Source: an uncultured Bacteroidales bacterium
GTDB taxonomy: Bacteria; Bacteroidota; Bacteroidia; Bacteroidales; P3
Direction: 5' to 3'
Length of the DNA: 64,000 bases
NCBI GenBank assembly: GCA_944321735.1
Contig: CALUMK010000005.1
Span: 54,040 to 118,039 of the forward strand
Position 1 is the stretch's first letter. Every line of letters starts with the position of its first letter. Shown one piece after another: positions 15,398 to 30,797 of this stretch. A program made the translations under genes and the position numbers. The notes below the pieces were generated by a model. The model did no database searches and was not told where the DNA came from. It saw only the letters and a list, made by a program, of their open reading frames with translations.

Positions 15398-15660
15398 TTC
15401 AACGGCTGAAGCAAATCACAAAACAATCCATTTAATATATTTTCAAGTTATTGCAAATAAAAAGGTATCATTTTAGTAGTACTATTCCCGGTGTCCAGTA
15501 TTTTTCCCGTAACGTATTTTTTCCCTTTCTCCCGCTCATGACGTTTCTTCGTATTGCCGAGACACAGCACAAGAGGCAAGCCCCGTAATCCGGATACGAG
15601 ACGATGCCGGTCTCGGAAGAAAGCCCGCACGGGCAACCGAACAAACCAAAAATCCAAATT

Positions 15661-18600
15661 ATGAAAAAGCAACTGCTGACCTTATGCTGCGCCATAGGAA
15701 TAGCTTCTTCCAGTGTCATGGCACAGAACGTAAAAACCTCTTACGAGCAAAAGAGGCTAGCCTATGAACAGAAAAAAATAGACATCTTCCAAGGGGCGGA
15801 AAGCGATGTGATTCCGATCCTGCAAACATCCTCCATCGAAAGATACAATGATATAAGGCAGAAAAACAGCCACGGGGCGCACATGCGTTCATTAGCGGAA
15901 TATCCTGCCTTGTACCAGTCCGTCATTTCCCGAAAGACAAAGGATGATGCGGACAGACTGACCGCCATCGGGGAATTCGGCTCCATCTCATGGACCATGC
16001 TGACGAATCCAGAGAATGGCAATTCCATGCTCATCACGATAGAATACGACCCCTCCGATGTCGATCGGAACGGAGTACGCAATTATTCCCGCGGCGTCAC
16101 AATCACCTGCTACGACGACAGCCTCAAAGCCACGAAAGACTTTTACCTGAAAACCTCCGATACGACCCAGAGTGTCATCATCATGAGCCAATACTCTACC
16201 AATTACTTCAACTGGGACGACAAGATGGAATTCATGATTCATGCGCACAGCTTCGCTGCGGGATACGGACCCGAATCTTGCCGAGATACCATGTTCATTG
16301 TCAACGAAGACGGCGAGATTCTCCAGCGAATCGGAAACACCAGCGATGCCTCCCTGCATACTGCCCCTGGAGAATTCTTCGATGAAAACCGCATCGCCGT
16401 AAGTCCAGCCTACTACTCCGGCTTGCACGACACAACCTTCACCTACATCTATGAAGCCGAGAACTTCGTGGGCGAAACCCCTGTCCCGTTGTTCAGATTC
16501 GCTATTCCTGACAACCTTGTAGCCCACAGCTCCGGCCCCATGGCATCGATCATGGAAATCGAAGGGGAACCTTTTTATGTGACTACCCAATATGCCAAAC
16601 CTTTCATCTCTAACGGCGACATGCTGAATCCAATCGTTGAAAAAGACAACGAATTCAGGATTATCATGCTCGACATGAACTTCGACACAGTGAAAGACAT
16701 CCGGTTGCCGCTTTTTGGAATAGAAGAGAATGATTACAGCATGGCCTCGCTCGATTATTTCGACAAATACAGAATCACCCGCCATACCTTCAACAACGAC
16801 GATAAGATTGAAATCATCTACGGTATAAACCAGTATCACGCCGATTGCGACTGTGAAATGATGAATTTGTACTTGGTAGACGAAGACGGCAACATCATCC
16901 AGGACATAGCCGAACAGATTTCCGGCGTGAAACGCTTGCTTGACATTCCTGGCCAAGAGGATGAATACGCCATTTCCATGAGCCAAGGAGATGGCATATC
17001 GGGCTTCCAGATGTTCCGCATGCCGGACATGGAAAAAGGGTTCTTCTTTCCTGCCAATCTCAACGGGGATCAGCTTTCCTCTACTTTTGACCGTGCAGTC
17101 AACGTCAACGGCGGTTATGACTACATCTTCGCATTGGGGATGGGCGAAGCCGATGACGAAACCACATACGGTATCATCGCACGCTACGACCAAGAAGGGC
17201 AACCGACCCAACGAATCCAAATCAATATCGGTAAAAACGGCGCCGTGTTCTCCCCGTTGTTCAATGCTTCGACCCTGAATCCGTACACTTTTGTACCTGA
17301 TGAAGAAATGGAATACCTCTACATGTCCGCCACGCTCGACGATGCCGGCATGCACCGACGTTTGGGCATAGCCACAGCAGAAAAGAACCTCTACGTAATA
17401 GACGACAACCCGGAACACGGCAGCATAGCCAATGTCGGCCTGCTGCGCGACATGGCAGGAACCAAGAACCATGCCATGTTCGTCTCCTTCTCTCCCGACG
17501 GCATTTCGGTTTCCAAGACCATCTTCTACCAACTGCCGCTGGAAACCCCGGACACCTTGCAAGGACAAGGCACGGAAGAAGATCCTTATGTCATCACCAA
17601 CGCGTTCGAGCTGGATCAGATCCGGAACTATCCAGATGCATATTTCATTCTTGGAAACGACATCGACATGGCATCCTACTCAGGCCTCGATGGTTCGGGA
17701 TTCATCAGCATACCAGAATTCTACGGACATCTCGACGGACAGAACCACTGCCTCTCTAACCTGCATCTGACATCGCATGGCCTATTCGCTTTGCTGATGC
17801 CCGAAGCAAGCATCGAAAACCTCCGCATGGAGAACATCAGCTTCGAAGAAGGATACGCTATCATGGGAAGCATCGCAGGCCAATCCATGGGAGGCATCAT
17901 CCGAAACTGCCATGTGTCGACAGAACACTCCTCCTTCGGAAATGAGATGTTCGGCGGCATCGTCGGTGAAGCCTCCGCCTACACGATTATCGACCAATGC
18001 AGCTTCCAAGGCAGCATCAACGTAGCCAAAGGCGAAAACGTAGGTGGCATAGCAGGCCAGCTGAAAACCGGCAGCACCATCATGAACAGTACAACGAAAG
18101 GCTCGATAAAAGGCGTGGCATCGGTCGGCGGCATTTGCGGTTCGACCTCCCGCAACGGAGGCAACATCACAGACTGCTACTCCAGCATGGATGTAACCGG
18201 AAGCGAATCCTTCGGCGGTATCATCGGCGAAAACACCGGCCAGATTACAAGGACCTACGCCGATGGGAACATCCTGTTTGCCCAGAACGACCAGACTAAC
18301 TTTCCCGGCGGGGCCGGTGGCATCGCCGGAAGCACAAGCCTGACCGGAAGCGGCCAGATCAAATACTCGTTCGCCCTTAACGATACCGTCTGGGCACCGG
18401 AAAATTTTGCCAGAATTGCCTATGCCACTATGTACGACAATTACCAAGGAAGTCCTACATTAGACTCGAACTTCGCCAAAAAAGACATGCGGATTGGCGC
18501 ATCCATGGAAGAACTTGACCCTGTGAACGATACCAACTGCGCCATCAACCGCATGCACGGGGAATCGCACGAACTGGCAGACTTCACGCAGGAGTTCTAT

Positions 18601-19683
18601 TCCGATTACGGATGGACCTTCGGATCCGATTCCGCGGCCCCTTGGCAGATGTCCGGCAGCAAGCCTCGCCTCTGGTGGGAATTCAACGTGCGCGGCGTGG
18701 AGCTTCCCTTTGCCGAAACCACGCTTGACAAAGGGGAAAGCCTGACCCTTGTCCCGGTCATCATTCCTGCTGATGCCTCCAACAAGAACGTATTCTTTGC
18801 CACATCCGATGCCGCTGTCGCATCTGTGAACCAAGAAGGGGTCGTGACGGCCAACAACGCTGGCAGCGCGACCATCACCGTCACCACGGAAGAGGGCGGC
18901 ATGACGGCCTCCTGCATCATCAATGTCGAGATTCCTGTAGAAGAAGTCCGGTTCACCGCCGACACATTCTATGTGGCCAAAATGGCAGACATCACGGTAA
19001 CAGCAGAAGCATTTCCTGAAGATGCCACCAACAAAGGCTTGAGATACTATTCTTTGGATCCGAGTATCGCCAGAAGCGTAGGAAGCTTGATTACCGGCAT
19101 GGAACCCGGATATGCCAAAGTGGTGGCAGCCGCAGAAAAAGGCGATGCATCCGACACCTGCGTGGTACGGGTCTATATCCCCGTCGAACAAATCTTCCTG
19201 AACGAGAGCAGCATCACCCTGAACAATGCCACGCCATCGTTCCAGTTGCGAGCCACCCTCTACCCGGACGATGCCACCGAGGTGCCTCTGACATGGACTT
19301 CGACCGATGAAAACGTGGCTACCGTCAGCAATACAGGCATGGTCAGCGGTCATGCCATGGGTTCCGCCACCGTGACTGTCAGCACGTCCGACGGGGCTGT
19401 GTCCGCCTCCTGCTACGTCCAGGTAACCGAGAACGTGGCCAACGAAGGAGCGGATGCCGTTTCCCTCACCGGCAGGATAGATCACGGGGACTTTGTGCTG
19501 GAATGCTCCTTGCCGATTGCCGCTGTCCAGATTTACTCCACGGCTGGGAATCTGGCTTATGCAAACCATTCATTCAACGCCTGCATGGTCAGGATCCCGG
19601 GCGGAGGATTCTCCAATGGCCTCTACCTGATACGGGCCACCTTGGAAGACGGGCAGCAAGCCATCGTGAAACTGATCAAATAA
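15661..19683 (+). CDS. Giant T9SS surface protein with GLUG-like and Ig-like (BIG2) repeats, copy 1
   Basis: A 1340-residue protein from the ATG at 15661 (signal MKKQLLTLCCAIGIASSSV, then MAQ). Residues ~25-620 form a family-specific region of strand-rich repeats with motifs such as FIVNEDGEILQRIG and DKYRITRHTFNNDDKIEIIYG. Next comes GTEEDPYVITNAFELDQIRN, a typical entry into GLUG-type beta-helix repeats (GGIVGEAS, GGIAGQLK, GGICGSTS, GGIIGENT). Three BIG2-type Ig repeats follow (PADASNKN, FPEDATNKG, YPDDATEVPLTWTS), then a type A sorting tail ending IVKLIK. Likely an adhesin exported by T9SS. It shares its architecture with 20638-24693. It is followed by a hairpin and a 39-residue membrane microprotein. 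Two small leader hairpins precede it (15597-15615, 15623-15634). Confidence 0.88.
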   Translation: MKKQLLTLCCAIGIASSSVMAQNVKTSYEQKRLAYEQKKIDIFQGAESDVIPILQTSSIERYNDIRQKNSHGAHMRSLAEYPALYQSVISRKTKDDADRLTAIGEFGSISWTMLTNPENGNSMLITIEYDPSDVDRNGVRNYSRGVTITCYDDSLKATKDFYLKTSDTTQSVIIMSQYSTNYFNWDDKMEFMIHAHSFAAGYGPESCRDTMFIVNEDGEILQRIGNTSDASLHTAPGEFFDENRIAVSPAYYSGLHDTTFTYIYEAENFVGETPVPLFRFAIPDNLVAHSSGPMASIMEIEGEPFYVTTQYAKPFISNGDMLNPIVEKDNEFRIIMLDMNFDTVKDIRLPLFGIEENDYSMASLDYFDKYRITRHTFNNDDKIEIIYGINQYHADCDCEMMNLYLVDEDGNIIQDIAEQISGVKRLLDIPGQEDEYAISMSQGDGISGFQMFRMPDMEKGFFFPANLNGDQLSSTFDRAVNVNGGYDYIFALGMGEADDETTYGIIARYDQEGQPTQRIQINIGKNGAVFSPLFNASTLNPYTFVPDEEMEYLYMSATLDDAGMHRRLGIATAEKNLYVIDDNPEHGSIANVGLLRDMAGTKNHAMFVSFSPDGISVSKTIFYQLPLETPDTLQGQGTEEDPYVITNAFELDQIRNYPDAYFILGNDIDMASYSGLDGSGFISIPEFYGHLDGQNHCLSNLHLTSHGLFALLMPEASIENLRMENISFEEGYAIMGSIAGQSMGGIIRNCHVSTEHSSFGNEMFGGIVGEASAYTIIDQCSFQGSINVAKGENVGGIAGQLKTGSTIMNSTTKGSIKGVASVGGICGSTSRNGGNITDCYSSMDVTGSESFGGIIGENTGQITRTYADGNILFAQNDQTNFPGGAGGIAGSTSLTGSGQIKYSFALNDTVWAPENFARIAYATMYDNYQGSPTLDSNFAKKDMRIGASMEELDPVNDTNCAINRMHGESHELADFTQEFYSDYGWTFGSDSAAPWQMSGSKPRLWWEFNVRGVELPFAETTLDKGESLTLVPVIIPADASNKNVFFATSDAAVASVNQEGVVTANNAGSATITVTTEEGGMTASCIINVEIPVEEVRFTADTFYVAKMADITVTAEAFPEDATNKGLRYYSLDPSIARSVGSLITGMEPGYAKVVAAAEKGDASDTCVVRVYIPVEQIFLNESSITLNNATPSFQLRATLYPDDATEVPLTWTSTDENVATVSNTGMVSGHAMGSATVTVSTSDGAVSASCYVQVTENVANEGADAVSLTGRIDHGDFVLECSLPIAAVQIYSTAGNLAYANHSFNACMVRIPGGGFSNGLYLIRATLEDGQQAIVKLIK

Positions 19684-19697
19684 ACACATTTCTAATA

Positions 19698-19736
19698 TTG
19701 CCATGGAGGAGACTGCCGAGCCTCTCTCCATGGCAA
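19698..19736 (+). other. Stem-loop between surface protein 1 and its microprotein
   Basis: TTGCCATGGAG (19698-19708) pairs perfectly with CTCCATGGCAA (19726-19736). No T run follows, and the microprotein ATG is 13 bases downstream. The second module has a different sequence but the same 11-bp stem in the same place (24705-24750). Confidence 0.75.
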
Positions 19737-19749
19737 TAACCCGTACCGA

Positions 19750-19869
19750 ATGGAAAAAACTGAAAGTCATCCCAAAAACTTCATTTCCAAGAATCTGGTA
19801 CCCATCATGGTCATATCGCTGGCAGGCATTATCGTGGTTGTCATCTTACTGATCAGTACATTGGAATAG
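19750..19869 (+). CDS. 39-residue single-helix membrane microprotein, copy 1
   Basis: ATG at 19750 to TAG at 19867-19869. The N-terminus is polar and mildly basic (MEKTESHPKNFISKN). It leads to LVPIMVISLAGIIVVVILLI, a strong transmembrane helix, and a four-residue tail. It has no signal peptidase site, so it is probably an inner-membrane protein with a short cytoplasmic N-terminus. The reading frame is supported by a homologue at 24807-24926 with the same length, same position after a giant T9SS gene, and matching NLVPIM and SLAGIIV blocks. It belongs to no family I know. Role inferred only from linkage: a partner, chaperone or membrane tether for the upstream cargo. Confidence 0.75.
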   Translation: MEKTESHPKNFISKNLVPIMVISLAGIIVVVILLISTLE

Positions 19870-19890
19870 GCAAGCAACGGGCGATATGTC

Positions 19891-20131
19891 ATAATGAGCA
19901 ATCTGCTGCGTTTCTTGGGTTTCACCGAAAACAGGCTGCACCTCGGCCAAAAGCAGTGCAAGTCGAAGGCAGAGACAAAACTCGTTTCGGCTATGCTGAG
20001 ACGTAGCCTGTGTTCGCTGGAAAGCAAACTCAAACCTATCGGTTTGGTTCGGCTCTCGGTTTGCACTGTTTTTCGAGACTCGAACTCAGTCACGTACCTA
20101 AGATACACCCTCAACCCGCATTCCTCATAAT
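19891..20131. repeat. Large imperfect palindrome (BIME-like intergenic repeat)
   Basis: The ends ATAATGAG (19891-19898) and CTCATAAT (20124-20131) are near complements. The interior carries blocks shared with other copies: ATCTGCTGCGTT near the left end and TCGAACTCAGTCACG near the right, both also found at 36281-36405. No coding signal. Confidence 0.6.
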
Positions 20132-20146
20132 AAATATTGGTTTTGG

Positions 20147-20245
20147 TTAACCCCAAATCGGTCATCAGACTTTGGGGTAACTGGTTTTTGGTTGGAGAGG
20201 GGGCCGCAAGCCTCCTCTTTTTTATCGATGACCGATCCGGGTTTA
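20147..20245. repeat. MITE-like element with AACCCCAAATCGGTCAT ends
   Basis: TTAACCCCAAATCGGTCATC at 20147-20166 is inversely repeated as GATGACCGATCCGGGTTTA at 20227-20245. The same terminal sequence forms the ends of the element at 52297-52498. The module terminator sits inside this copy. Confidence 0.6.
20196..20223 (+). terminator. Terminator of module 1
   Basis: AGAGGGGGC pairs with GCCTCCTCT (one bulge) around CGCAA, followed by a run of T. It shares the preceding GGTTTTTGGTT text with the module 2 terminator. Confidence 0.85.
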
Positions 20246-20248
20246 CCA

Positions 20249-20341
20249 GAAGCGAGCAGTCTACGTTGGGACAAAACTTCCGCCTCGCTGATATTGTACC
20301 GCTGACAGATACCGGAAGCGAGCGGCCTACGTTGGGACAAA
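20249..20341. repeat. 27-bp imperfect direct repeat pair
   Basis: GAAGCGAGC, two variable positions, then CTACGTTGGGACAAA, occurs at 20249-20275 and 20315-20341, 66 bases apart start to start. Confidence 0.7.
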
Positions 20342-20399
20342 GCCCCGATGACGCTTCCCCCTGCTCGCAAAATAAATCCGCACAGTTTTGAAGGTACTG

Positions 20400-20431
20400 G
20401 AAAGAATCCGCCAAGGCGGATTCTTTCATTT
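20400..20431 (+). terminator. 13-bp near-loopless hairpin
   Basis: GAAAGAATCCGCC (20400-20412) pairs with GGCGGATTCTTTC (20415-20427), then ATTTT. An (AT)9 run follows at 20444-20461. It is probably a terminator insulating module 2 from upstream transcription. Confidence 0.55.
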
Positions 20432-20637
20432 TGTAACCAATTGATATATATATATATATATCGACTCTTGCAGTACATCCCCCGTACTACCATTTTCAAG
20501 AACGGTAAATTTTCCGTAGCTGTTTTTTTCTATCCTTGTCCAATTCTCTTTTTCTTCGAGCCAAGAAAATCCCGGAAGCAAAGGACGGCCAGGCTGCAGA
20601 TGGCCGCATCCCTGACCGGATAACAAAAAAAAGCATC

Positions 20638-23600
20638 ATGAAGAGAACATTGCTAACATTGAGCCTCGCCATAGGGATCGTATCCTCCGGCCTCATGGCG
20701 CAAAACGCTTTCTTTCCACAGAACGCGCAGACCGAACAAGAAAAAGCCGTTGAACAGCAACGCATGGAAATCTTTGCCGGGGCCACGGCGGAAACCCTGC
20801 CCCACGTTCCTGCGCACAAGCTATCCGACTGGGCCGACCGGACCGACAAGGTCTTCCAAGAACCGAACTGGTGGCCCCTGTCCAGCAATCCGGCTCTATA
20901 CAATGCCGTCAAAGCCAAAAGCGTAACAAACACAGGAACGGACAACCTCTCCGTGGAAGCCACTTTGGCCGTATCCGGCTGGGGATCGTTGAGCAGCACG
21001 GAAGACGGGACGCAGATGCTGTACTCCATCGAGCCGATTCCTTCCAACGTTGTCTATGGCACTCAACAATACTATAAAGGAATCCGTTTCACTTACTACA
21101 ACGACTCCTTGAAGCCCATCAAGGAATTCGAGTTGTACTCCAACACGGATACGACGCAGACCTTTTCCATCATGACGCAATACTCTTCCCGCGTCTTCAA
21201 CACAGACAACAAACTGGAATTCGTCATCCAGGCCCACAGCTTCTCCGGCGGATTCGGATTGGGTCCCATCAGCTGCCGCGACACGATTTATGTCGTCAAC
21301 GAGGACGGGGAAATCCTCGCCAAACGTGGTTCGACCCAAGGCCTCAATCTCCACCAAGCACCTTCCGGATATTCAACGGAGAACCGGGCGTTGATTACAC
21401 GCAGCAACTATTCCCCCATCTCCGACACGGCCCATGTCGAAGTCTGGAACACGCGCGACCTCCTCGAACCCGACGGGCAGCCCCTCCACGTGTTCAGCTT
21501 AGCCAACAACCTGACCTCCTATACCGAAGGCCCCTTCATTGAAACGATGGAAATAGAAGGAGACTTCTTCTATGTCGTCCGCCACAACCAGAAGCCTTTC
21601 GTGGCCAACGGGGACCAGATGAACCCGGTGGTGGAAAAGAACAACCGCTACATGATTGACATTTACAACCCGGACTTCAGCCTGGCCAAAAGCATCGCCT
21701 TGCCCTTGATCGGTCAGGACGAGAACGAATGGAGCGTGGGTTCGCAGCTCTACTTTGACAAATACCGGCTCACCCGCCACACTTTCAACGGGGATGACAA
21801 GTTCGAAGTGCTGTACGGCATGAGCCGCTATGTGGCAAGCTGCGACTGCAACATCCTTTATTTCTATTTGATGGACGAGGATGGAAACATGATTAAGGAA
21901 CTGCTGCCCGATGGCTTGAGCGGGATGACCCGTCTTCAGGACATTCCCGGCCAGAATACCCAGTACGGACTCTGGATGGACAACGGCGGCGGCATCACCG
22001 GCGTGGGGATGTACGACATCGATGCCCAGGAATTCGTCTACACTTTCCCGGCCCGGCACAACGGCTTCATGATTTCGCTCAACTACGATCGGATCCCTGA
22101 CAAGAACGGTAGCTACGAATACGTGTTCGGCTTGGGGAGCAGCGAAGCCGGGGAGAACACGACCTACGGCTTGGTAGCCCACTACGATACCGAGGGCAAC
22201 GAGCTCAAGCGCGTACGCATCGACTTGGGACCCAACGCCGCTTCTTTCCAGCCCATCCTGAATGTCAGCACCCTCAACCCTTATGCCTTCATTTCCGATG
22301 AAAAACTGGAATACCTCTGGTTCGCAAGGGAATATTATGTGGAAACCGGAAGCTACGGCGGAGGCTTCGGCATGTCCAACGAGGATTCCACGCTTTATGT
22401 ATGGCGGATTTCCGACGGCCTGCCCTTGGACGGGGCCGGTGTCCTGGCCGATGCAACCCGGACGAAACTGCAATGGCTGTATGTAAGTTACGTGGATGTC
22501 TACGGCGAATCCAAAACCGACTTCTACCGTCTGCCTTTGGACGAGCCGAGCCTGCAAGGGGAAGGTACGGAAGAAAATCCCTACATCATCACCAATCCCG
22601 TGGAACTGGACCTGGTGCGCAACCATCCCGATGCCTGGTTTGAATTAGGCAACGACATCGACATGAGCGCCTTCAGCGGCGTGAGCGGCAGCGGATTCCC
22701 CGCCATTGAAACCTTCAGCGGCCATTTCGATGGCAAGAACCACTATATCAAGAATATCACGATACACGAGCATGAGGGGTGCGCCGGCCTGTTCGCCAAC
22801 GTGAACAACGGCAGCATCCAGAACCTTCAGATGAAGAATGTCTCGTTCACGCTCAACGCCCCGTATCATATCGGCTGCATTGCCGCCAGCCTGACAGGAG
22901 ATTTGAAAAACTGCCACGTGGAAGCCGATTTCGAAATTCTCACGGATGCCACGGTAGGAGGTCTTGCCGGTACCGTCATAGGCAGCATCGACCAATGCAG
23001 CTTTTCCGGAACGATGAACATCACCGGCGATGCGACCACGGGCGGCATTGCCGGCAAGCTGATGGCCCAACGCTCGGTAACCAACTCCACCACTTCGGGT
23101 GCCATCCTCGGAACCAGCAATGCGGCCGGAGGTATCGTGGGCAGCACCATGATGAACGCCTCCATCCGGAACTGCCATTCCGGAATGGATGTGACCGCGG
23201 TGTCCTATGCCGGGGGCATCGTGGGCGACAACCGGGGTTTCACGGAAAACGCCTACGCTACCGGAAGCATCACCTCGCTCTACGATGAAACCACGCAATG
23301 GCACAATAACATGGCCGGCGGCATTGCCGGGAACACCCAATTGGGCATGATGCCTGGCTATGTAAAACATTCGTTCGCTTTGAACGACACCATCGTGTCG
23401 CCTATCGACTACGCTCGTGTAGCCAATGCAGACTATTATTCCAACTACAGCGGCAACATCGCCATGGATTCCAACTACGCTCTCAACACCTTGCTGGTAG
23501 GGCCAAGGGCAGATTCGTTGTACGCCCCTGCCGCCAGCGACACCATGACCCAGGCAAACCGCAAGCACGGCCAGACCGGCACCTTGGAAGAATTCAACCA

Positions 23601-24693
23601 GGCCTTCTACGAAGCCAATACCTGGACTTTCGGGCAAGACTCTCTGGCTCCTTGGGTCATGAGCGGCAACATGCCACGCCTGTGGTTCGAGTTCAATGTC
23701 CGTGCCGTGGAACTGCCTTTTGCAGAAACGTCCATCGAAAAGGGTTCAAGCCTCACCCTCCTGCCTACAATTATCCCTGCTGATGCCACCGACAAGACTT
23801 GCCGGTTCAGCAGTTCGGACGTGGCCATCGCTTCCGTGAACCAGGACGGCGTAGTGACCGGAAACAATGCCGGTACGGCCACCATCACCGTAACCACCAA
23901 CGACGGCGGCTTCACCGCTTCCTGCCAGGTACATGTCACCATCCCGGTAGAACAAGTCATCCTGGCTGAAGACACCGTGACGACCAGCCCGTACGGCACC
24001 CTTACCCTCGAATACACCGTACTGCCCGAAGAGGCCACCAACCAGCACGTCTTGTTCCGGTCCGCCAACGAAGGTATCGTGATGTGCTACGGTAGCACCC
24101 TCATGGGCGTAGCGGTCGGCACAACGCAGGTAATCGCCGTATCCGAAGACGGCCATGCCTCCGACACCTGCGTGGTCAATGTCATTATCCCGATTGAAGA
24201 CATTACCTTGAACGAAAGCAGCATCACCCTCAACAATGCCACGCCTTCCTTCCAGTTGCGGGCGACCCTCTATCCGGAAGACGCTACCGAAGTGCCTTTG
24301 GTTTGGACATCCGAAGACGAAACCGTAGCCACTGTCAGCAATAACGGACTGGTCAGCGGACATGCCAAGGGTTCCACCACGGTAACTGTCAGCACGGAAG
24401 ACAATGCCATATCTGCCTCATGCTTTGTCACGGTATCTGAAAACGTGGCCAACGAAAACATGACGGACGGCTTTATCTCCGCTCGCATCGATATGGACTA
24501 CTTCGTAGTGGAAAGTTCCAACCTCATCCGTTCGGCAAGCGTTTATTCCGCCATCGGAACCTTGGTTTACGAAAACGCGACGGTAGCCTCCGAATCGCTC
24601 AGGATTCCCGCACAACATCTTGACAACGGCCTCTACCTGATCCGTGTCACCATGGAAAACGGGCAAACGGCCACCCTCAAGATTGTCAAATAG
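20638..24693 (+). CDS. Giant T9SS surface protein with GLUG-like and Ig-like (BIG2) repeats, copy 2
   Basis: A 1351-residue paralogue of 15661-19683 with the same domain order. Signal MKRTLLTLSLAIGIVSSGLM then AQ; start at ATG 20638, since the upstream extension begins at a TTG in leader sequence. Parallel motifs include YVVNEDGEILAKRG, DKYRLTRHTFNGDDKFEVLYG, GTEENPYIITNPVELDLVRN, GLUG-like GGIAGKLM / GGIVGDNR, and three BIG2 repeats. The block LNESSITLNNATPSFQLR is identical in both copies, while other Ig segments differ clearly. The tail ends TLKIVK, a type A sorting end. It also has a stem-loop and a 39-residue membrane microprotein after it. Likely T9SS adhesin; ligand unknown. Confidence 0.88.
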   Translation: MKRTLLTLSLAIGIVSSGLMAQNAFFPQNAQTEQEKAVEQQRMEIFAGATAETLPHVPAHKLSDWADRTDKVFQEPNWWPLSSNPALYNAVKAKSVTNTGTDNLSVEATLAVSGWGSLSSTEDGTQMLYSIEPIPSNVVYGTQQYYKGIRFTYYNDSLKPIKEFELYSNTDTTQTFSIMTQYSSRVFNTDNKLEFVIQAHSFSGGFGLGPISCRDTIYVVNEDGEILAKRGSTQGLNLHQAPSGYSTENRALITRSNYSPISDTAHVEVWNTRDLLEPDGQPLHVFSLANNLTSYTEGPFIETMEIEGDFFYVVRHNQKPFVANGDQMNPVVEKNNRYMIDIYNPDFSLAKSIALPLIGQDENEWSVGSQLYFDKYRLTRHTFNGDDKFEVLYGMSRYVASCDCNILYFYLMDEDGNMIKELLPDGLSGMTRLQDIPGQNTQYGLWMDNGGGITGVGMYDIDAQEFVYTFPARHNGFMISLNYDRIPDKNGSYEYVFGLGSSEAGENTTYGLVAHYDTEGNELKRVRIDLGPNAASFQPILNVSTLNPYAFISDEKLEYLWFAREYYVETGSYGGGFGMSNEDSTLYVWRISDGLPLDGAGVLADATRTKLQWLYVSYVDVYGESKTDFYRLPLDEPSLQGEGTEENPYIITNPVELDLVRNHPDAWFELGNDIDMSAFSGVSGSGFPAIETFSGHFDGKNHYIKNITIHEHEGCAGLFANVNNGSIQNLQMKNVSFTLNAPYHIGCIAASLTGDLKNCHVEADFEILTDATVGGLAGTVIGSIDQCSFSGTMNITGDATTGGIAGKLMAQRSVTNSTTSGAILGTSNAAGGIVGSTMMNASIRNCHSGMDVTAVSYAGGIVGDNRGFTENAYATGSITSLYDETTQWHNNMAGGIAGNTQLGMMPGYVKHSFALNDTIVSPIDYARVANADYYSNYSGNIAMDSNYALNTLLVGPRADSLYAPAASDTMTQANRKHGQTGTLEEFNQAFYEANTWTFGQDSLAPWVMSGNMPRLWFEFNVRAVELPFAETSIEKGSSLTLLPTIIPADATDKTCRFSSSDVAIASVNQDGVVTGNNAGTATITVTTNDGGFTASCQVHVTIPVEQVILAEDTVTTSPYGTLTLEYTVLPEEATNQHVLFRSANEGIVMCYGSTLMGVAVGTTQVIAVSEDGHASDTCVVNVIIPIEDITLNESSITLNNATPSFQLRATLYPEDATEVPLVWTSEDETVATVSNNGLVSGHAKGSTTVTVSTEDNAISASCFVTVSENVANENMTDGFISARIDMDYFVVESSNLIRSASVYSAIGTLVYENATVASESLRIPAQHLDNGLYLIRVTMENGQTATLKIVK

Positions 24694-24704
24694 CAGCCTG
24701 TGTC

Positions 24705-24750
24705 GCCAGAACGGGCCGGTCTGAACAAGGTGTTAGAGACCCGTTCTGGC
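24705..24750 (+). other. Stem-loop between surface protein 2 and its microprotein
   Basis: GCCAGAACGGG (24705-24715) pairs perfectly with CCCGTTCTGGC (24740-24750). It is not followed by a T run. Position and stem length match the hairpin of module 1, although the sequence is unrelated. Confidence 0.75.
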
Positions 24751-24806
24751 TATCACCTTGAGCGTACAGGTTTTGCATCCTGATACACTGCCACAGCTTT
24801 GAATTA

Positions 24807-24926
24807 ATGGAAAATACAGAAAAACAAAACAAAGGAATCATACTCCGGAACCTGGTTCCCATCATGATATTCTCTTTAGCCGGCATCATCGTGATTGTGA
24901 TTCTTTTGATTAGAACAATTTCATAA
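24807..24926 (+). CDS. 39-residue single-helix membrane microprotein, copy 2
   Basis: ATG at 24807 to TAA at 24924-24926, exactly the length of the copy at 19750-19869. It starts MENTEKQNKGIILRN, then LVPIMIFSLAGIIVIVILLI as the membrane helix, then RTIS. About half of the residues match copy 1, concentrated in NLVPIM, SLAGIIV and VILLI. Retention of length, helix and position in diverged neighbours argues for a real gene rather than chance. A terminator follows 30 bases downstream, so it should be the last cistron of the unit. Function unknown. Confidence 0.75.
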   Translation: MENTEKQNKGIILRNLVPIMIFSLAGIIVIVILLIRTIS

Positions 24927-24955
24927 CATTAGGTTTTTGGTTAGTTTTGGTTGTC

Positions 24956-24983
24956 AGAGGGGGCTTCGGCTCCCTCTTTTTTT
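24956..24983 (+). terminator. Terminator of module 2
   Basis: AGAGGG-GGC pairs with GCT-CCCTCT around TTCG, followed by at least seven T (to 24983). It marks the end of the + strand cargo region; the next genes are on the - strand. Confidence 0.92.
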
Positions 24984-25238
24984 GCCCCGCTCCAGCCATC
25001 ATCAAAGCCCTCCGGAAACGGGTCGAACACGGCATCAGCAGCTCGCTGCCCGTCTACTCAAAGGCAACAGGGTCATCAATGCCGGACACCATCTTCCTTG
25101 TCCGCCTCTTCCGAGGTCGCTGGCTCAAACCCGGCCATGCCAGAAGCGCGAAAACCCAATGAATAAGACCTCTGCAAAACGAAAAATACCTTGTTGCAGA
25201 ACGGAAAAATGCATAAAGGAAAACAATTTGCCGAGGTA
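24984..25238. other. Gene-free interval before the RloAB cassette
   Basis: No supported gene. A tRNA T-arm-like sequence near 25120 has no matching acceptor or anticodon arm. The interval separates convergent units. Confidence 0.5.
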
Positions 25239-25868
25239 TCAAAAAATGCCTAAGAAATCAAAAAGCTTATGCATCCCGGAATGGCCTCGCTCCAACTGCT
25301 CCAAATCAAATCGCTCGGTAATCCGAGCATTATCTATGGCTTGTGACAAAAATGGCTTCAGACGAAGATATATATCGTTCTTTTCAGCTGTAAAATACCG
25401 CTTTGTCTTCTCGTAACCCGAAAAAAGCGAATGCTTTTGCATCTCCTTTATAACGGATTCGCAAGAATCGTAATACCGAGTTGTCCGAACCGCATGCAAT
25501 AGAAACCAAAATTCAAGGCAAGGGGTATTGGCTATGAAAACCACATTAATCGGTAATTTTTGCAAGCATTCGTTCAAAACATGCCGAGGCGATTTGCCCC
25601 GACCGGAATGTTGCCGGGTTTCCCGGATTATCGTGTCAGTATCCACAATCCATATCACCTCCGAATAAGCTTTGCTCAATGCCTTTACACAACAAAACTG
25701 TTCCTGTACACTCTTCTTCTGAGGGAGTTCCGGTTTGATGGCCAAACCACGTAACGATGGCTCGTTCCGTTTCAGCATATTCAGATACCAGACTTCGGTC
25801 ACCCCGTCCACCACGCAGGCGATAGCCCGCCTCAAATCCTTTCCCCGGCTACTTCCCTTCATCCTCAT
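25239..25868 (-). CDS. RloB-like TOPRIM-fold protein (probable Abi-type defence effector)
   Basis: A 209-residue protein resembling RloB. TOPRIM-like features are an N-terminal VVDGVTEVWYLNML with Glu25 after the glycine turn, the acidic pair VIWIVDTDTI (Asp76, Asp78), and the family block NTPCLEFWFLLH at about 114-125. The usual family motif is close to NPCFELWLLLH. RloB-type proteins occur with AAA ATPases as two-gene systems linked to restriction islands and abortive infection; a nuclease role is assumed for the TOPRIM part. The start (ATG 25868 or 25862) lies inside the end of the upstream ATPase gene, a 20-bp overlap that implies translational coupling. Confidence 0.82.
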   Translation of the reverse strand: MRMKGSSRGKDLRRAIACVVDGVTEVWYLNMLKRNEPSLRGLAIKPELPQKKSVQEQFCCVKALSKAYSEVIWIVDTDTIIRETRQHSGRGKSPRHVLNECLQKLPINVVFIANTPCLEFWFLLHAVRTTRYYDSCESVIKEMQKHSLFSGYEKTKRYFTAEKNDIYLRLKPFLSQAIDNARITERFDLEQLERGHSGMHKLFDFLGIF

Positions 25869-27156
25869 CCAGATTCAGATAATAATCCCCAAGATTGGGA
25901 ACTGCCCCTAAACGACCTGCTGTATAGGCATTGAGTATGTTGGTCGTATCTCTGACCACATCGGATTTAAAATCAGACAACTTATATACCGTAGTTGCAG
26001 AATTTTCATCCTTTTCCGTAAAAACGATCATGTCGTTCCGATAGATGTCCTTATTGTTCAGAAACTCCCGGTTGTGCGTCGTCGCTATCAATTGCGAATG
26101 CTTGGCATTGACACAAAACGTCAAAAGGAAATGCTTGGCAAGTTCTGGATGGATGGAACTTTCCAATTCATCCAAACAATAGCAAGTGTCTTTTGTTACC
26201 AAGCGGTATAAAATACCGGCCAATCCAAAATAACGTTGCGTCCCCAACGATTCTTCATTGAATTTTATATCTGAATAATGCATGCCATTGCTATCATGCT
26301 GGAACTTGAGATCCAAAGTTTCAAATCCGGGAGTCCCCTGCATGGGCTTGATAAATGCAGGTTTCCTCTCAAATGGAATTTGCATCGTCCTTATGTCTCC
26401 TATGGAAGCCCCCTTTTGAATCAATATATCCGAAATGTTGAAGTCCGCTTTATTCAAAATCGACAACAATTTCTCTTTTAAAATCTTACCTTCATCAATC
26501 TGAGTAATCACATAAGAGGACAAATCATGCCTCGGCATCACCATATTGTTCAAATACAACAAAAACCAATCCGAAACAGAACGGAGCACCGGCTGATCCA
26601 TGTTGGTCTTCAGAAAACCGCATATGACCGATTCGTTCCACAAGGTGTTTGTTATCAATGCCCCAAGGACATTTTTATCGGTCAACGATTCAAACGTACC
26701 CCATTTGATGACAGTCAACTGCTTTTCGATATCCGTCATCCGAGAATAAACTGTTCTGCCGCGTTTTCCGGTTTTCAACACTTCATTGACAATACAGGCT
26801 GCATTGAATTCGATACGGTAATAATAATCCTGCCCCTGCTGGATAAAACGGATCTCAAATACGGTATTCTGCTTCCGGGAAACTTCATCCATCAAAAAAG
26901 GACGTACACCTATTCCGTCTGTTTTAGATCTTTTCGGCAAACAAACCAGTTTCTGCAAGAAATCCAATGCCTTTAAAACCGTAGTCTTCCCCGATGCATT
27001 GGCTCCGTAAATCAACGCCACTTTAAGCAACCTATGTCCTCCCAAGGATACCGTATAATACTCATCAAGATGATGTATGTTCTTTTTAGCAACGAAAGAC
27101 AAGGTTTGCTTCTCCCTAATCGAAGCAAAGTTCTCTATGCTGAAATCGACAATCAT
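25849..27156 (-). CDS. RloA-like AAA family ATPase (probable defence ATPase)
   Basis: A 435-residue SMC/ABC-like ATPase. It opens MIVDFSIENFASIREKQTLS, the common start of OLD/RloA-type ATPases. Walker A is GANASGKT at 51-58. A signature-like segment (ESLGTQRYFGLAG) precedes Walker B CYCLDELESSIHPELAK, and the switch His is in IATTHNREFL. A middle insertion (about 150-250) holds no recognised motif. With RloB it forms a two-gene cassette like the AbiL/RloAB type of anti-phage system, in which the ATPase senses or gates and the TOPRIM protein acts. The region is visibly richer in A+T than its neighbours, which suggests acquisition by transfer. Confidence 0.85.
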   Translation of the reverse strand: MIVDFSIENFASIREKQTLSFVAKKNIHHLDEYYTVSLGGHRLLKVALIYGANASGKTTVLKALDFLQKLVCLPKRSKTDGIGVRPFLMDEVSRKQNTVFEIRFIQQGQDYYYRIEFNAACIVNEVLKTGKRGRTVYSRMTDIEKQLTVIKWGTFESLTDKNVLGALITNTLWNESVICGFLKTNMDQPVLRSVSDWFLLYLNNMVMPRHDLSSYVITQIDEGKILKEKLLSILNKADFNISDILIQKGASIGDIRTMQIPFERKPAFIKPMQGTPGFETLDLKFQHDSNGMHYSDIKFNEESLGTQRYFGLAGILYRLVTKDTCYCLDELESSIHPELAKHFLLTFCVNAKHSQLIATTHNREFLNNKDIYRNDMIVFTEKDENSATTVYKLSDFKSDVVRDTTNILNAYTAGRLGAVPNLGDYYLNLDEDEGK

Positions 27157-27421: not shown

Positions 27422-28183
27422 CTACCGAACCACAAGCTTGCGAGTTACCACTGCCTTACCGTTTTCTTCAACACTGTAGAAGTAAACACCGGCATTCAAA
27501 GCTTCCAGATTCATGCTCAATTCGGTTTCGCCTTTTACAGCCACCGACTCTACCACACGGCCGTTCATATCGCGCAGCACCACCTTCGAACCAGCCTTTA
27601 CATTAGCCAGCATGAAGTGAACTTCGCCCATGGTCGGGTTGGGATAAGCGGAAATCGCTATACGGTCCAAACCTTCATTAGCTGTTGTATCTTCACCTTT
27701 AGGAAGAGGAACAAAACGGATTGAGAAATTCAAGCTAGCACCGGCCGTCTTGTCGGTAAACACGCAATTAACAGTCCACGGGTTATAATCGCCCGATGCA
27801 GGCTGGTATGCAAAATCGAATGGAACGGGATCCAAATCAGTAGGTTCTCCCACCGTCGCTCCAGCGGCAATAGTCTGATCGGGTATTTCCCATGTCACGG
27901 CGCAAGAGCCAAATGAGCAATTCTGCCACATAGCACCTTCAGGAAGCGGGGTGGCCCCTTCCATTGTCGCAGCAAAAACCAAATCCGCAGCCGAAGTATT
28001 GGTCAACGTCCAATGAGCCACTACCGTCATTGCATTCCAATCAGCCGGGTCTATTACCGAAGAAACCTCAATCGTAGCACCTTCAGTAACTTCTTGCCCT
28101 TCAACATTCACAGTGAAATTTTGAGCACTAGCCATGCCCAGCCCTGCCATGGCAAAGGCCATATAAGCAAAAATCTTTTTCAT
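27422..28183 (-). CDS. Small T9SS cargo protein at the end of the Omp28 operon
   Basis: A 253-residue protein with a signal peptide at about 1-20 (KKIFAYMAFAMAGLGMAS then AQ). A ~140-residue beta-rich domain follows (VAHWTLTNTSAADLVFAA, CSFGSCAVTWEIPDQ) with a short Cys pair. A complete type A sorting tail ends it: ISAYPNPTMGEVHFMLA, VVLRDMNGRVVESV, GVYFYSVEENGK, KLVVR. It is the last gene of the TlpA / DUF6029 / Omp28 unit, 52 bases after Omp28, and a strong terminator follows. In this phylum small proteins of this type often accompany Omp28; the function is unknown. Confidence 0.87.
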   Translation of the reverse strand: MKKIFAYMAFAMAGLGMASAQNFTVNVEGQEVTEGATIEVSSVIDPADWNAMTVVAHWTLTNTSAADLVFAATMEGATPLPEGAMWQNCSFGSCAVTWEIPDQTIAAGATVGEPTDLDPVPFDFAYQPASGDYNPWTVNCVFTDKTAGASLNFSIRFVPLPKGEDTTANEGLDRIAISAYPNPTMGEVHFMLANVKAGSKVVLRDMNGRVVESVAVKGETELSMNLEALNAGVYFYSVEENGKAVVTRKLVVR

Positions 28184-28235
28184 TTTTAATTATTTTTAAT
28201 TTTTAAATTCCCTTGAACTCGCAAACCGAAAGCCA

Positions 28236-29060
28236 TTATTCATCTCCAAGATGAACAATCTCCACTTGTATCACCTCCCGGCTATTCGCATTCACTACGG
28301 CAGCCACTACAGACAGTTTATTGGTTCTCCATGCCTTATCTACCGTCCCACTGAGAGAGGTGCTGAATGTCGTTCCCCGGGTAGGTGCTTCCGAAGCCAC
28401 CTGGCTTCCCCATTCAGGTCCCAAGACTGCACGCAAGACATGGTTATGGACATAATTGCCATTGACCCCCGTCGGCGTTGTCTGGGGAGCCACAATACTA
28501 TCCTCCAGAATCATGGTAATCAGATTAACGGCTCCGTCCGCCTCATAATTCTCCACAAAACTGCCTTCCACACTAACCGCTATCGTGGAATCCGTAGACA
28601 TATTGGCTGTCAGCGATAAATCCACATAATTGATTCCCCCGCTAATCACTTCCGCTATCGCTCCGCCCCATTCTTGATATCCTATCACTTCCTGACGATT
28701 TACCATCCCGTTAGGAAACTGCTCAATCGCAAATTCAGTAGCCCAAGTCTGCGCCACCGAAGACCGCAGGTCGCGGTTCGGATCCCACGGCTGGGTCAAG
28801 CCAGTAGGCTGCATCGGATAAACCCCCACCACAATGATATTATCGCCGTAAAATTCCTGCAAGCGTTCAATCTCCGCCGCAGCCGTCGGACAGTTCACAC
28901 AACGAACCCCGGTATAGTCTTCCAAAAGAACTTTACGCTCGCTCGAAATGGGGCCAGTATAATCCGTCTTGTAATCGTCCTTCTCCACCGTGTCGCAAGC
29001 AGCCGCCAGCAAGCCGAAACCTGCCAGCATTACAGCTCCGATATATCTCAAATTCTTCAT
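28236..29060 (-). CDS. Omp28-related lipoprotein with thioredoxin-like CxxC
   Basis: A 274-residue lipoprotein with lipobox LLAAAC (Cys22), so it should be anchored at the periplasmic or outer face of the outer membrane. After KVLLEDYTGVRCVNCPTAAAE the pair Cys54/Cys57 forms a CxxC at the head of a thioredoxin-like fold (IIVVGVYPMQPTG). This opening is the hallmark of the Omp28 family. The second half (VDLSLTANMSTDSTIAVSV onward) is an Ig-like domain. Neighbours are a DUF6029 barrel protein 18 bases upstream and a TlpA-like thioredoxin further up. The operon therefore carries two thioredoxin-fold proteins, suggesting a shared role in thiol chemistry or outer-membrane biogenesis (inference). 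Confidence 0.9.
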   Translation of the reverse strand: MKNLRYIGAVMLAGFGLLAAACDTVEKDDYKTDYTGPISSERKVLLEDYTGVRCVNCPTAAAEIERLQEFYGDNIIVVGVYPMQPTGLTQPWDPNRDLRSSVAQTWATEFAIEQFPNGMVNRQEVIGYQEWGGAIAEVISGGINYVDLSLTANMSTDSTIAVSVEGSFVENYEADGAVNLITMILEDSIVAPQTTPTGVNGNYVHNHVLRAVLGPEWGSQVASEAPTRGTTFSTSLSGTVDKAWRTNKLSVVAAVVNANSREVIQVEIVHLGDE

Positions 29061-29078
29061 AATCTATACCTCCTGTTT

Positions 29079-30797
29079 TTAGAATGAGGAACTCAAAGTC
29101 AACATAACCCCGTTCGATGCCGGCACTTCGCGGCAAACCCCGCCCGAGCACATGATACCCTGACGAATCTTGCCGTAAGACAACGAAATACGGGTGGCAT
29201 CGTGGATATAACCGGCCGACACGTAATAATAATGGAAACGGCGATCCTTGTCATCGTTGCCCACATTCCACTGGTCGGATACCGAAACGAACCAAGAAGG
29301 AGCGAAAGTGTACTCCAACGTACCCATCAGCCAATCCTGGTCAATCTGCTTGGTATGCAAGTACTGCAATTCCAACCGCAAGGCATGTTTCTTCAGAAAC
29401 ATATAAGTGAAGTCGCCCACCGCGATATGCGCATAAGCCCTCGGCTCGCCATGGCCTTCCACCACTTCCTGATTGTAAAGCTCGAACATGTACATCAAGG
29501 TCATCTTGAAGTTCTTGTTGAACTTGTGACCGATTTCCAAGTTGGCATCGATAAAGTATATATTATCGGCATCCATATGGAACGGCTTCACATCGTAGCC
29601 CCAAGTACCCTGCGCCGGCGTAGTGCCGCCTTCTTCCGCACTGGTTATATTGGTGTGTTCCGGAGCAAAAGCCACCGAAGCGTTCAACTTCAAGTCCGTG
29701 CCATACTTGCCGCCCAGAAACGTTCCGCGCTTGATCTTGTATTGGATATCCGCCTGGAATGCCACTTCCCCCTGTGTCTGGCAAGCGTATGGATAAAGCG
29801 AAGCCAGACTGTAGGTATGCTGACGGGTCAACGCCGGCATATAGTTAATCATACCGTAATTGCCCAACTCGGCGCGGTCGCCACGGAAGCCCATGTTATC
29901 CACGCTCTTGGCCTGCAACAAGATACCGAAACCGCGCATGGAGTAACCGGCATTCAGCAAGATAGCCTGCCCCGGACGGTATATATAGCCGTTTTCCGCC
30001 GAGGGGTCGTTGGCCTTGTAGACATATTCCCCACCTACTGTAAAGCCGCCGCTCTCAACATTCAAACGAGCCGCCGCCGACCCTACGTTTTCCGGCAGGT
30101 TCAACTGATAAGGCGTCAAACCGTTTTCGGTATTTTCAATCACCAATTTGGTCCCAGCCTCCTGGTATTTCGAAACAAAGCTACCGCCCAAGGTAATCCG
30201 CGTGCCCCAGCTCTGCATCGGCTTGATAAAGTCGTTGAAAGCCAAGTCCAAGTCCACCCCGCGAATCAAGCCCACATGATCCCAGAAGTGACGCTGCGTC
30301 CCGATGATACCCTTGATCGTGATACCGTTCACCGGACGAACGATGGCGCGTACCCCGCTAATCGCGTTGTCGATACCCAAGTTCCAATCCTGGTAAGCCC
30401 GCAGAATCATCCCCGAACCGAACTGTTCGTAGAACGAACCGGCGGTCACATCGATGATGTCGCCGCTGAAACGGGCAAAATAATAAGGCAATCCCCAGCC
30501 GTCCAGACGGGCATCGTAGCCGAGCATCGGCTTGAAATAGCCTTCAAAACGGGCACCGACCGAAAACTTGCCGTTGGTGTACTGCAAATACGCAAAGCTG
30601 TTGCTGCGCAGTTTTTCCGGAACATCCGGCACCCCGATCAAAGAATCCTTGAAATACATCTGGGCATCGATCTGGATATTCCCCGAAAGGGTTCCCCGCC
30701 CTAACATTTCCTCGAACTTGCTTTCCTGGGCATGGCCAGCAAACGGGCAAGCCAAAGCAGCCACCAATCCAGCAAACGCTAATCTTTTTAATTTCAT
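29079..30797 (-). CDS. DUF6029 family outer-membrane barrel-like protein
   Basis: A 572-residue protein with a signal peptide (RLAFAGLVAALACPFAGHAQ). The body matches DUF6029 proteins: GRGTLSGNIQIDAQMYFKDS near the start, LGYDARLDGWGLPYYFARFS, and AGSFYEQFGSGMILRAYQD. It consists of alternating amphipathic strands ending in an aromatic residue (VMLTLSSSF), as expected of an outer-membrane beta-barrel. A Cys pair lies near the C-terminus (CSGGVCREVP). It sits between TlpA and Omp28 in one transcription unit. The family has no assigned function. A long antisense open frame over this gene is a composition artefact. Confidence 0.88.
   Translation of the reverse strand: MKLKRLAFAGLVAALACPFAGHAQESKFEEMLGRGTLSGNIQIDAQMYFKDSLIGVPDVPEKLRSNSFAYLQYTNGKFSVGARFEGYFKPMLGYDARLDGWGLPYYFARFSGDIIDVTAGSFYEQFGSGMILRAYQDWNLGIDNAISGVRAIVRPVNGITIKGIIGTQRHFWDHVGLIRGVDLDLAFNDFIKPMQSWGTRITLGGSFVSKYQEAGTKLVIENTENGLTPYQLNLPENVGSAAARLNVESGGFTVGGEYVYKANDPSAENGYIYRPGQAILLNAGYSMRGFGILLQAKSVDNMGFRGDRAELGNYGMINYMPALTRQHTYSLASLYPYACQTQGEVAFQADIQYKIKRGTFLGGKYGTDLKLNASVAFAPEHTNITSAEEGGTTPAQGTWGYDVKPFHMDADNIYFIDANLEIGHKFNKNFKMTLMYMFELYNQEVVEGHGEPRAYAHIAVGDFTYMFLKKHALRLELQYLHTKQIDQDWLMGTLEYTFAPSWFVSVSDQWNVGNDDKDRRFHYYYVSAGYIHDATRISLSYGKIRQGIMCSGGVCREVPASNGVMLTLSSSF

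What the first reader, a model, noticed from the sequence alone, without database searches (positions are those of the whole stretch)
19750..24926. A pair of unannotated 39-residue membrane microproteins, each behind a giant T9SS protein
Seen: two ORFs of exactly 39 codons (19750-19869, 24807-24926) sit after the two giant paralogues. Both have a polar N-terminus, NLVPIM, then SLAGIIV..VILLI as one membrane helix and a short tail. About half the residues match, although flanking DNA has diverged. Known: ORFs this short are often missed by gene callers. Inferred: a small inner-membrane partner, export tether or chaperone for the cargo.
Basis: partly seen in the sequence, partly recalled or inferred. 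Interest (0 to 1): 0.8.

Follow-up and report, generated by a model that had tools for sequence, protein, structure and literature searches.

The report
Membrane microproteins behind T9SS surface proteins
Two tiny 39-residue membrane proteins, each apparently made from the end of the transcript of a giant secreted surface protein in an uncultured Bacteroidales bacterium, look like real conserved genes, but what they do for the surface protein is not yet known.

Summary
Two 39-codon ORFs (19750-19869, 24807-24926) are 64% identical, more alike than their giant neighbours (47.5%). They are genes: amino-acid changes between homologues fall far below chance (8 against 15.9 expected, P=0.00005; 12 against 21.6). 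In the window neither has a T-run terminator or exact promoter motif between giant stop and ATG; five related giants without the microprotein all terminate 13-26 nt after their stop. One homologue (B of G006) does have a terminator-like hairpin before it. The model is one helix, residues 9-38.
The family is narrow: 3 of 13 genomes in the genus, only weak hits beyond it among 190 family and 393 order genomes. A second microprotein family (42 aa, same layout, homology unproven) sits 4 nt behind an unrelated T9SS cargo in 4 of 13 genus genomes. It is not a general T9SS habit, and related giants do without it.
Best reading: a co-expressed, N-in, single-helix inner-membrane partner acting on the cargo before or during export. 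The gene is near certain; this role is inferred.

The parts
15604..19683 (+). giant A, Big_2/Glug protein with T9SS-CTD-like end; likely start MKKQ at 15661
   Evidence: ORF, Pfam/NCBIfam
19696..19738 (+). hairpin between giant A stop and microprotein A, no T-run
   Evidence: stretch folds at -29.4 kcal/mol, z -6.0; similar stem in G007 (z -4.6)
19750..19869 (+). microprotein A, 39 aa
   Evidence: translation, selection test, helix model
20195..20219 (+). T-run terminator taken as the end of unit A; an intergenic repeat lies between; weaker terminator-like sites also lie between it and the microprotein
20536..24693 (+). giant B, paralogue of A; likely start MKRT at 20638
   Evidence: ORF, TIGR04183 over cut-off
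24290..24983 (+). 3' end of unit B (end of last Big_2, CTD, hairpin, microprotein, terminator), where near-identity to the sister genome G006 ends abruptly
   Evidence: alignment, identities
24705..24750 (+). hairpin between giant B stop and microprotein B, no T-run
   Evidence: whole stretch z -2.1
24807..24926 (+). microprotein B, 39 aa
   Evidence: translation, selection test
24956..24983 (+). T-run terminator of unit B

Best explanation
The two ORFs encode a small family of bitopic membrane microproteins. A polar N-terminus of about 15 residues with net charge +1 or +2 would stay in the cytoplasm, one helix would cross the inner membrane, and only a few residues would reach the periplasm. 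They are made from the tail of the cargo mRNA, after a hairpin, so output follows the cargo, perhaps reduced by that hairpin. Most likely mechanism (inferred): the helix sits beside the Sec translocon or the T9SS motor region and helps the giant cargo through the inner-membrane stage, as a local accessory or tether. Shown by computation: the genes are coding and constrained, and in the window nothing separates them from the cargo's transcript. Inferred: topology, location and partner.
For: Fewer amino-acid changes than expected in all 8 comparisons (P 0.002 or less). The microprotein is better conserved than its giant: 79.5 vs 67.3% (A, G000/G007), 64.1 vs 47.5% (A/B), and 68.4% against 55.0% for the last 80 aa of the giant (B, G000/G006). 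Terminators: with bulges allowed, no hairpin plus T-run lies before the microprotein in 4 of 5 intact A/B-type units, while 5 of 5 giants without one have it 13-26 nt after the stop (contiguous stems only). No exact TANNTTTG motif (Bacteroidota -7 element, recalled) lies between stop and ATG in the window. One helix, 9-38. A second microprotein of the same layout starts 4 nt after the stop of an unrelated CTD cargo in G000, G001, G006 and G007 (in G007 only the last codons of the cargo are on the contig). A third, unlike in sequence, starts 3 nt behind the divergent giant of G006:C4.
Against: Giants of G003, G005, G010 and both giants of G189 do without it. B of G006 has a strong terminator-like hairpin with CTTTTTG before the microprotein. 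The G007:C10 copy is interrupted. Only 3 genomes hold the family convincingly. Nearly all other T9SS cargo read in the same genome has none. No localisation, expression or interaction data; no PDB chain matched.
Confidence: 0.37

Rival explanations
1. A small membrane regulator co-expressed with the cargo but acting on something else, such as a sensor kinase, transporter or envelope-stress circuit, in the way the small membrane peptide MgrB (name recalled) feeds back on PhoQ.
For: Small single-helix proteins of this size are known regulators (PMC2789325 and PMC11539335, titles and abstract beginnings in the listing). Two ORFs with HisKA/HAMP and HATPase_c domains lie just upstream of giant A.
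Against: No such kinase was seen beside giant A in G007:C16, where the ORF just upstream is 537 aa on the other strand (that ORF was not annotated). The constant neighbour is the cargo.
Confidence: 0.35
2. A toxic or immunity-like peptide carried with the cargo, like a type I toxin or a contact-toxin immunity gene that moves with the 3' end of its gene.
For: Hydrophobic and short; hairpins precede it; the end of giant B and the microprotein differ together between G000 and G006.
Against: What differs in the giant is the end of a Big_2 domain and the sorting domain; no toxin domain passed a cut-off in Pfam or NCBIfam. The joint difference may just be the edge of a recently shared block. No Rfam match.
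Confidence: 0.1
3. The element works as RNA: the hairpin stabilises or processes the cargo mRNA, and the peptide is incidental.
For: Hairpins, mostly of unlike sequence, stand at the five A/B/C10-type loci folded (z -2.1 to -6.0). In the second family the hairpin overlaps N-terminal codons.
Against: Amino-acid constraint on the ORF, including the membrane part of the second family, which lies outside the hairpin (4 changes vs 8.7 expected, 6 vs 12.3).
Confidence: 0.1
4. Chance ORFs.
For: One copy is broken (G007:C10); five related giants have none.
Against: Selection tests, conserved length and frame, a three-codon in-frame insertion in B of G006.
Confidence: 0.02

Closest known systems
Bacterial single-helix small membrane proteins (MgrB and similar, names recalled)
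   Same: Under 50 residues, one predicted membrane helix, no catalytic parts
   Different: No significant match in Pfam, NCBIfam, PADLOC or PDB; encoded in the tail of a T9SS cargo unit
PorP/SprF partners of type B T9SS cargo
   Same: Gene usually clustered with one secreted cargo and thought to serve it (passages of PMC10202324)
   Different: PorP/SprF are PorV-like beta-barrels (same passages); here a single helix of 39 residues beside cargo with a type A-like CTD
Sec61beta / archaeal SecG-like tail-anchored translocon accessories (recalled; the search listed one review, not read)
   Same: Polar cytoplasmic N-terminus, one C-terminal helix, tiny tail (recalled)
   Different: No PDB sequence match; cargo-linked and found in three genomes only

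Membership tests
Protein-coding small ORF | Purifying selection on the amino-acid sequence | tested here: met
   A G000/G007 8 aa changes vs 15.9 expected, P 0.00005, dN 0.10 dS 1.39; B G000/G006 12 vs 21.6 (dS saturated, not used); A/B 14 vs 23.2
Protein-coding small ORF | Translated in the cell | not testable with these tools
   No ribosome profiling or proteomics at hand
Single-helix small membrane protein | One hydrophobic helix long enough to cross a bilayer | tested here: met
   Kyte-Doolittle maxima 3.16 and 3.06 over 18 residues; helix 9-38 in the model, mean pLDDT 93 and 91 for its second half
Single-helix small membrane protein | Located in the inner membrane | not testable with these tools
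   Inferred from sequence alone
Partner gene of a T9SS cargo | Same transcription unit as the cargo | tested here: met
   For both window loci by terminator placement and lack of an exact promoter motif; 4 of 5 intact A/B units, B of G006 being the exception; no RNA data
Partner gene of a T9SS cargo | Present wherever that cargo family occurs | tested here: not met
   Absent behind 5 of 12 giants read: G003, G005, G010 and two of G189
PorP/SprF cargo partners | Outer-membrane beta-barrel | tested here: not met
   39 aa, modelled as one helix
Type I toxin peptide | Toxic on overproduction, antisense RNA antitoxin | not testable with these tools
   No Rfam match at gathering scores in 15300-25500
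Second (C9) microprotein family as homologue of the A/B family | Significant sequence similarity | tested here: inconclusive
   hhalign E 0.0012 but probability 19.8% over 21 membrane residues; shuffles P 0.005-0.24 in eight comparisons

The most novel reading that the evidence does not exclude
In this clade some T9SS cargo genes carry, in their 3' unit after a hairpin, a dedicated inner-membrane microprotein partner matched to the cargo's C-terminal sorting region. At least two sequence-distinct families do the same job behind unrelated cargo. This would be a cargo-specific step of type IX export at the inner membrane that the searches here did not find described.
Probability: 0.15. Interest if true: 0.72.

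Novelty: new variant of a known kind. Interest (0 to 1): 0.43.

Why it matters
The cargo-specific T9SS partners described in the review passages seen here (PorP/SprF) are beta-barrels thought to act at the cell surface. A microprotein made from the cargo's own mRNA tail and under selection would point to cargo-specific handling at the inner membrane. It also marks the 3' ends of T9SS cargo genes as places to look for missed small genes. If the role proves unrelated to export, it remains a small, well-supported orphan gene family.

Tried and rejected
Stop-codon read-through joining the helix to the giant: rejected, because the frame relative to the giant varies (0 for A, 2 for B, 1 for C10) and in unit A, where it is in frame, more stops intervene.
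General T9SS rule: rejected. In G000, 92 places were read: 91 of the 98 CTD hits (B among them) plus giant A, which is not among the hits; 7 hits were not read. 7 of 92 have a hydrophobic ORF of 25-75 aa within 250 nt, against 2 of 92 on the reversed downstream strand; by eye only A, B and C9 have the single-helix polar-N layout. In G007, 70 of 79 hits were read (2 with under 250 nt downstream; the A and C10 giants, read elsewhere, are among the 9 left out): 5 of 70 against 1 of 70 control. Of these five, two come from a repeat, one looks two-helix, and one 32-aa ORF (L212) is a possible further case.
Homology of the C4 microprotein of G006 to A/B: not supported (P 0.22-0.85); no significant hairpin (z -1.4); no other strong match in 13 genus genomes (best E 0.085).
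Weak hits outside the genus: 4 genomes and 9, E 0.001-0.01, 18-21 bits against 54-95 for accepted members. 13 of the 14 rows lie in frames over 100 aa or hold stops; the last (G061, 30-aa frame) has neither. None was read further.
My first codon count for B G000/G006 (4 synonymous, 24 not) used a wrong gap placement; one search replaces it with the gap as in the protein alignment. In one search several cargo stops were read in the wrong frame; one search replaces it.
A fold search of the model was not run: a lone helix is uninformative.

Full report
What is there. The ORFs 19750-19869 and 24807-24926 are as described: 39 codons each and 25 of 39 residues identical. The giants before them (1359 and 1385 aa) carry Big_2 and Glug domains; giant B passes one T9SS sorting-domain cut-off and giant A resembles it but is below threshold. 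The genome has 98 T9SS sorting-domain hits at E up to 1, 83 of them over the cut-off (at that E the control genomes also ring, over the cut-off in 1 of 14). T9SS machinery genes were not searched.

Homologues. Searching 13 genomes of the genus with the two-row profile gave matches in 3: G000 (two), G006 (two) and G007 (one). G006 carries an identical A protein with two synonymous changes and a 41-aa B protein; G007 carries a 39-aa A protein. Among 190 family genomes 4 more, and among 393 order genomes 9 others, had weak hits (E 0.001-0.01) that I do not accept. The public genome scan gave 2 loci, on the contigs of G006 and G007. No Pfam or PADLOC family matched the microproteins; NCBIfam gave one chance-level hit (E 0.68) for B; no PDB chain matched.

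Coding. With substitutions placed at random, A of G000 against G007 should show 15.9 amino-acid changes and shows 8 (P 0.00005; dN 0.10, dS 1.39). B of G000 against G006 shows 12 against 21.6, and A against B 14 against 23.2. The microproteins are better conserved than the giants beside them (79.5 vs 67.3%, 64.1 vs 47.5%). The model is one helix, residues 9-38, with mean pLDDT 93 and 91 for residues 21-30 and 31-39.

Transcription unit. I read the DNA after 12 giants. Seven have a microprotein or its remains (A and B in G000 and G006, A and C10 in G007, C4 in G006) and five have none (G003, G005, G010, two of G189). With bulged stems allowed, all five giants without one have a hairpin with T-run starting 13-26 nt after the stop. 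Of the five intact A/B units, four (both of the window, A of G006, A of G007) have none before the microprotein; B of G006 has one (-23.7 kcal/mol, then CTTTTTGA) 7-45 nt after the stop, 54 nt before its ATG. The C4 and C9 units show no strong terminator just after the microprotein. Elsewhere in the genome 21 of 90 cargo genes have a contiguous-stem terminator within 60 nt, against 0 in shuffled sequence. A hairpin stands between stop and ATG at each A/B/C10-type locus folded (z -6.0, -4.6, -2.1, -3.8, -3.0). So the microprotein is made as a read-through product of the cargo transcript, freely in the window and perhaps attenuated in B of G006.

The 3' end of unit B. G000 and G006 are 90-100% identical per 100-nt window through unit A and giant B up to about 24290 (first 1200 aa of B 99.1%). 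From there identity falls to 41-80% per 100-nt window through sorting domain, hairpin and microprotein: last 80 aa 55.0%, microprotein 68.4%. The genes after it differ: an AbiLi/AbiLii-like pair here, other genes in G006. Order resumes at window 27422-29060 (protein identities 48 and 76%), and the DNA after that is 87% identical. The near-identical block is thus more alike than what follows, so its edge inside giant B may simply be the end of a recent exchange. Sorting domain and microprotein fall on the same side of that edge. This shows linkage by position; it does not prove that they must match.

A second family. Behind an unrelated 1435-aa CTD protein (CARDB, Cleaved_Adhesin, CarboxypepD_reg) a 42-aa ORF starts 4 nt after the stop. 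It is present in G000, G001 (identical), G006 (70%) and G007 (59%), 4 of 13 genus genomes, each time 4 nt after a sorting-domain tail, of which G007 shows only the last codons at the contig start. A three-row profile in 10 further genus genomes gave only G001 strongly (E 1.9e-28; the next best 0.26). Its membrane part shows 4 changes against 8.7 expected and 6 against 12.3. Its hairpin overlaps the N-terminal codons. Distant homology to the A/B family is possible but unproven. A tree of 12 giants needs two changes of the microprotein label, with a warning about long branches.

Against. Five giants lack it; the G007:C10 copy keeps only about its first 9 codons before a repeat at the contig end (insertion or assembly break); B of G006 has a terminator-like site before it; the family is confined to three genomes; and surveys of 92 and 70 cargo places show that such ORFs are rare.

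Mechanism. Shown by computation: coding, constrained, one helix, not separated from the cargo's transcript in the window. Inferred: N-terminus inside, inner membrane, action on the cargo at the Sec or T9SS-motor stage. T9SS cargo first crosses the inner membrane by Sec, and cargo-linked partners (PorP/SprF) are known for type B cargo (passages of PMC10202324). I put the partner role at 0.37 and the gene itself at above 0.95.

Literature. Searches (2 papers; none; none; 1; 23, 8 shown) of the held library listed no paper whose title or abstract start describes a microprotein linked to T9SS cargo; others were background. Only passages of PMC10202324 were read; the others were seen as listings. 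Absence from this library is not proof of novelty.

Noticed in passing
window 25239-27156 (-): AbiLi/AbiLii-like pair (AAA_21 ATPase and RloB protein), a candidate phage-defence system, in the segment that differs from the sister genome G006.
   Followed up: partly
window 12760-15397 (+): HisKA/HAMP domains (12760-15183) and the HATPase_c domain (14975-15397) of what looks like one histidine kinase lie in two different reading frames.
   Followed up: no
window about 15000-24290 against L012: Units A and B are nearly identical between G000 and G006, while the next shared DNA (window 29078-30027) is 87% identical, so the giant pair may have been exchanged recently.
   Followed up: partly
window about 19870-20190; L048 about 4415; L177, L209: An intergenic repeat (marker 19-mer at 20079-20097) that recurs behind the C4 microprotein of G006 and in G007; in unit A it lies between the microprotein and its terminator.
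   Followed up: partly
L044 (G007:C10:1-291): A 75-nt repeat, two copies head to tail at the contig end, runs into the microprotein gene after about 9 codons.
   Followed up: partly
L108 (G000:C5:38950-40000): A 70-aa DUF6722 protein starts 36 nt after a CTD-bearing ORF of 1421 aa.
   Followed up: no
L046, L047, L048: Giants of G010, G003 and G006:C4 are followed on the same strand by a gene of about 600 aa; the products were not annotated here.
   Followed up: no
L212 (G007:C25:11580-12690): A 32-aa lysine-then-hydrophobic ORF 42 nt behind another CTD cargo, a possible further microprotein.
   Followed up: no
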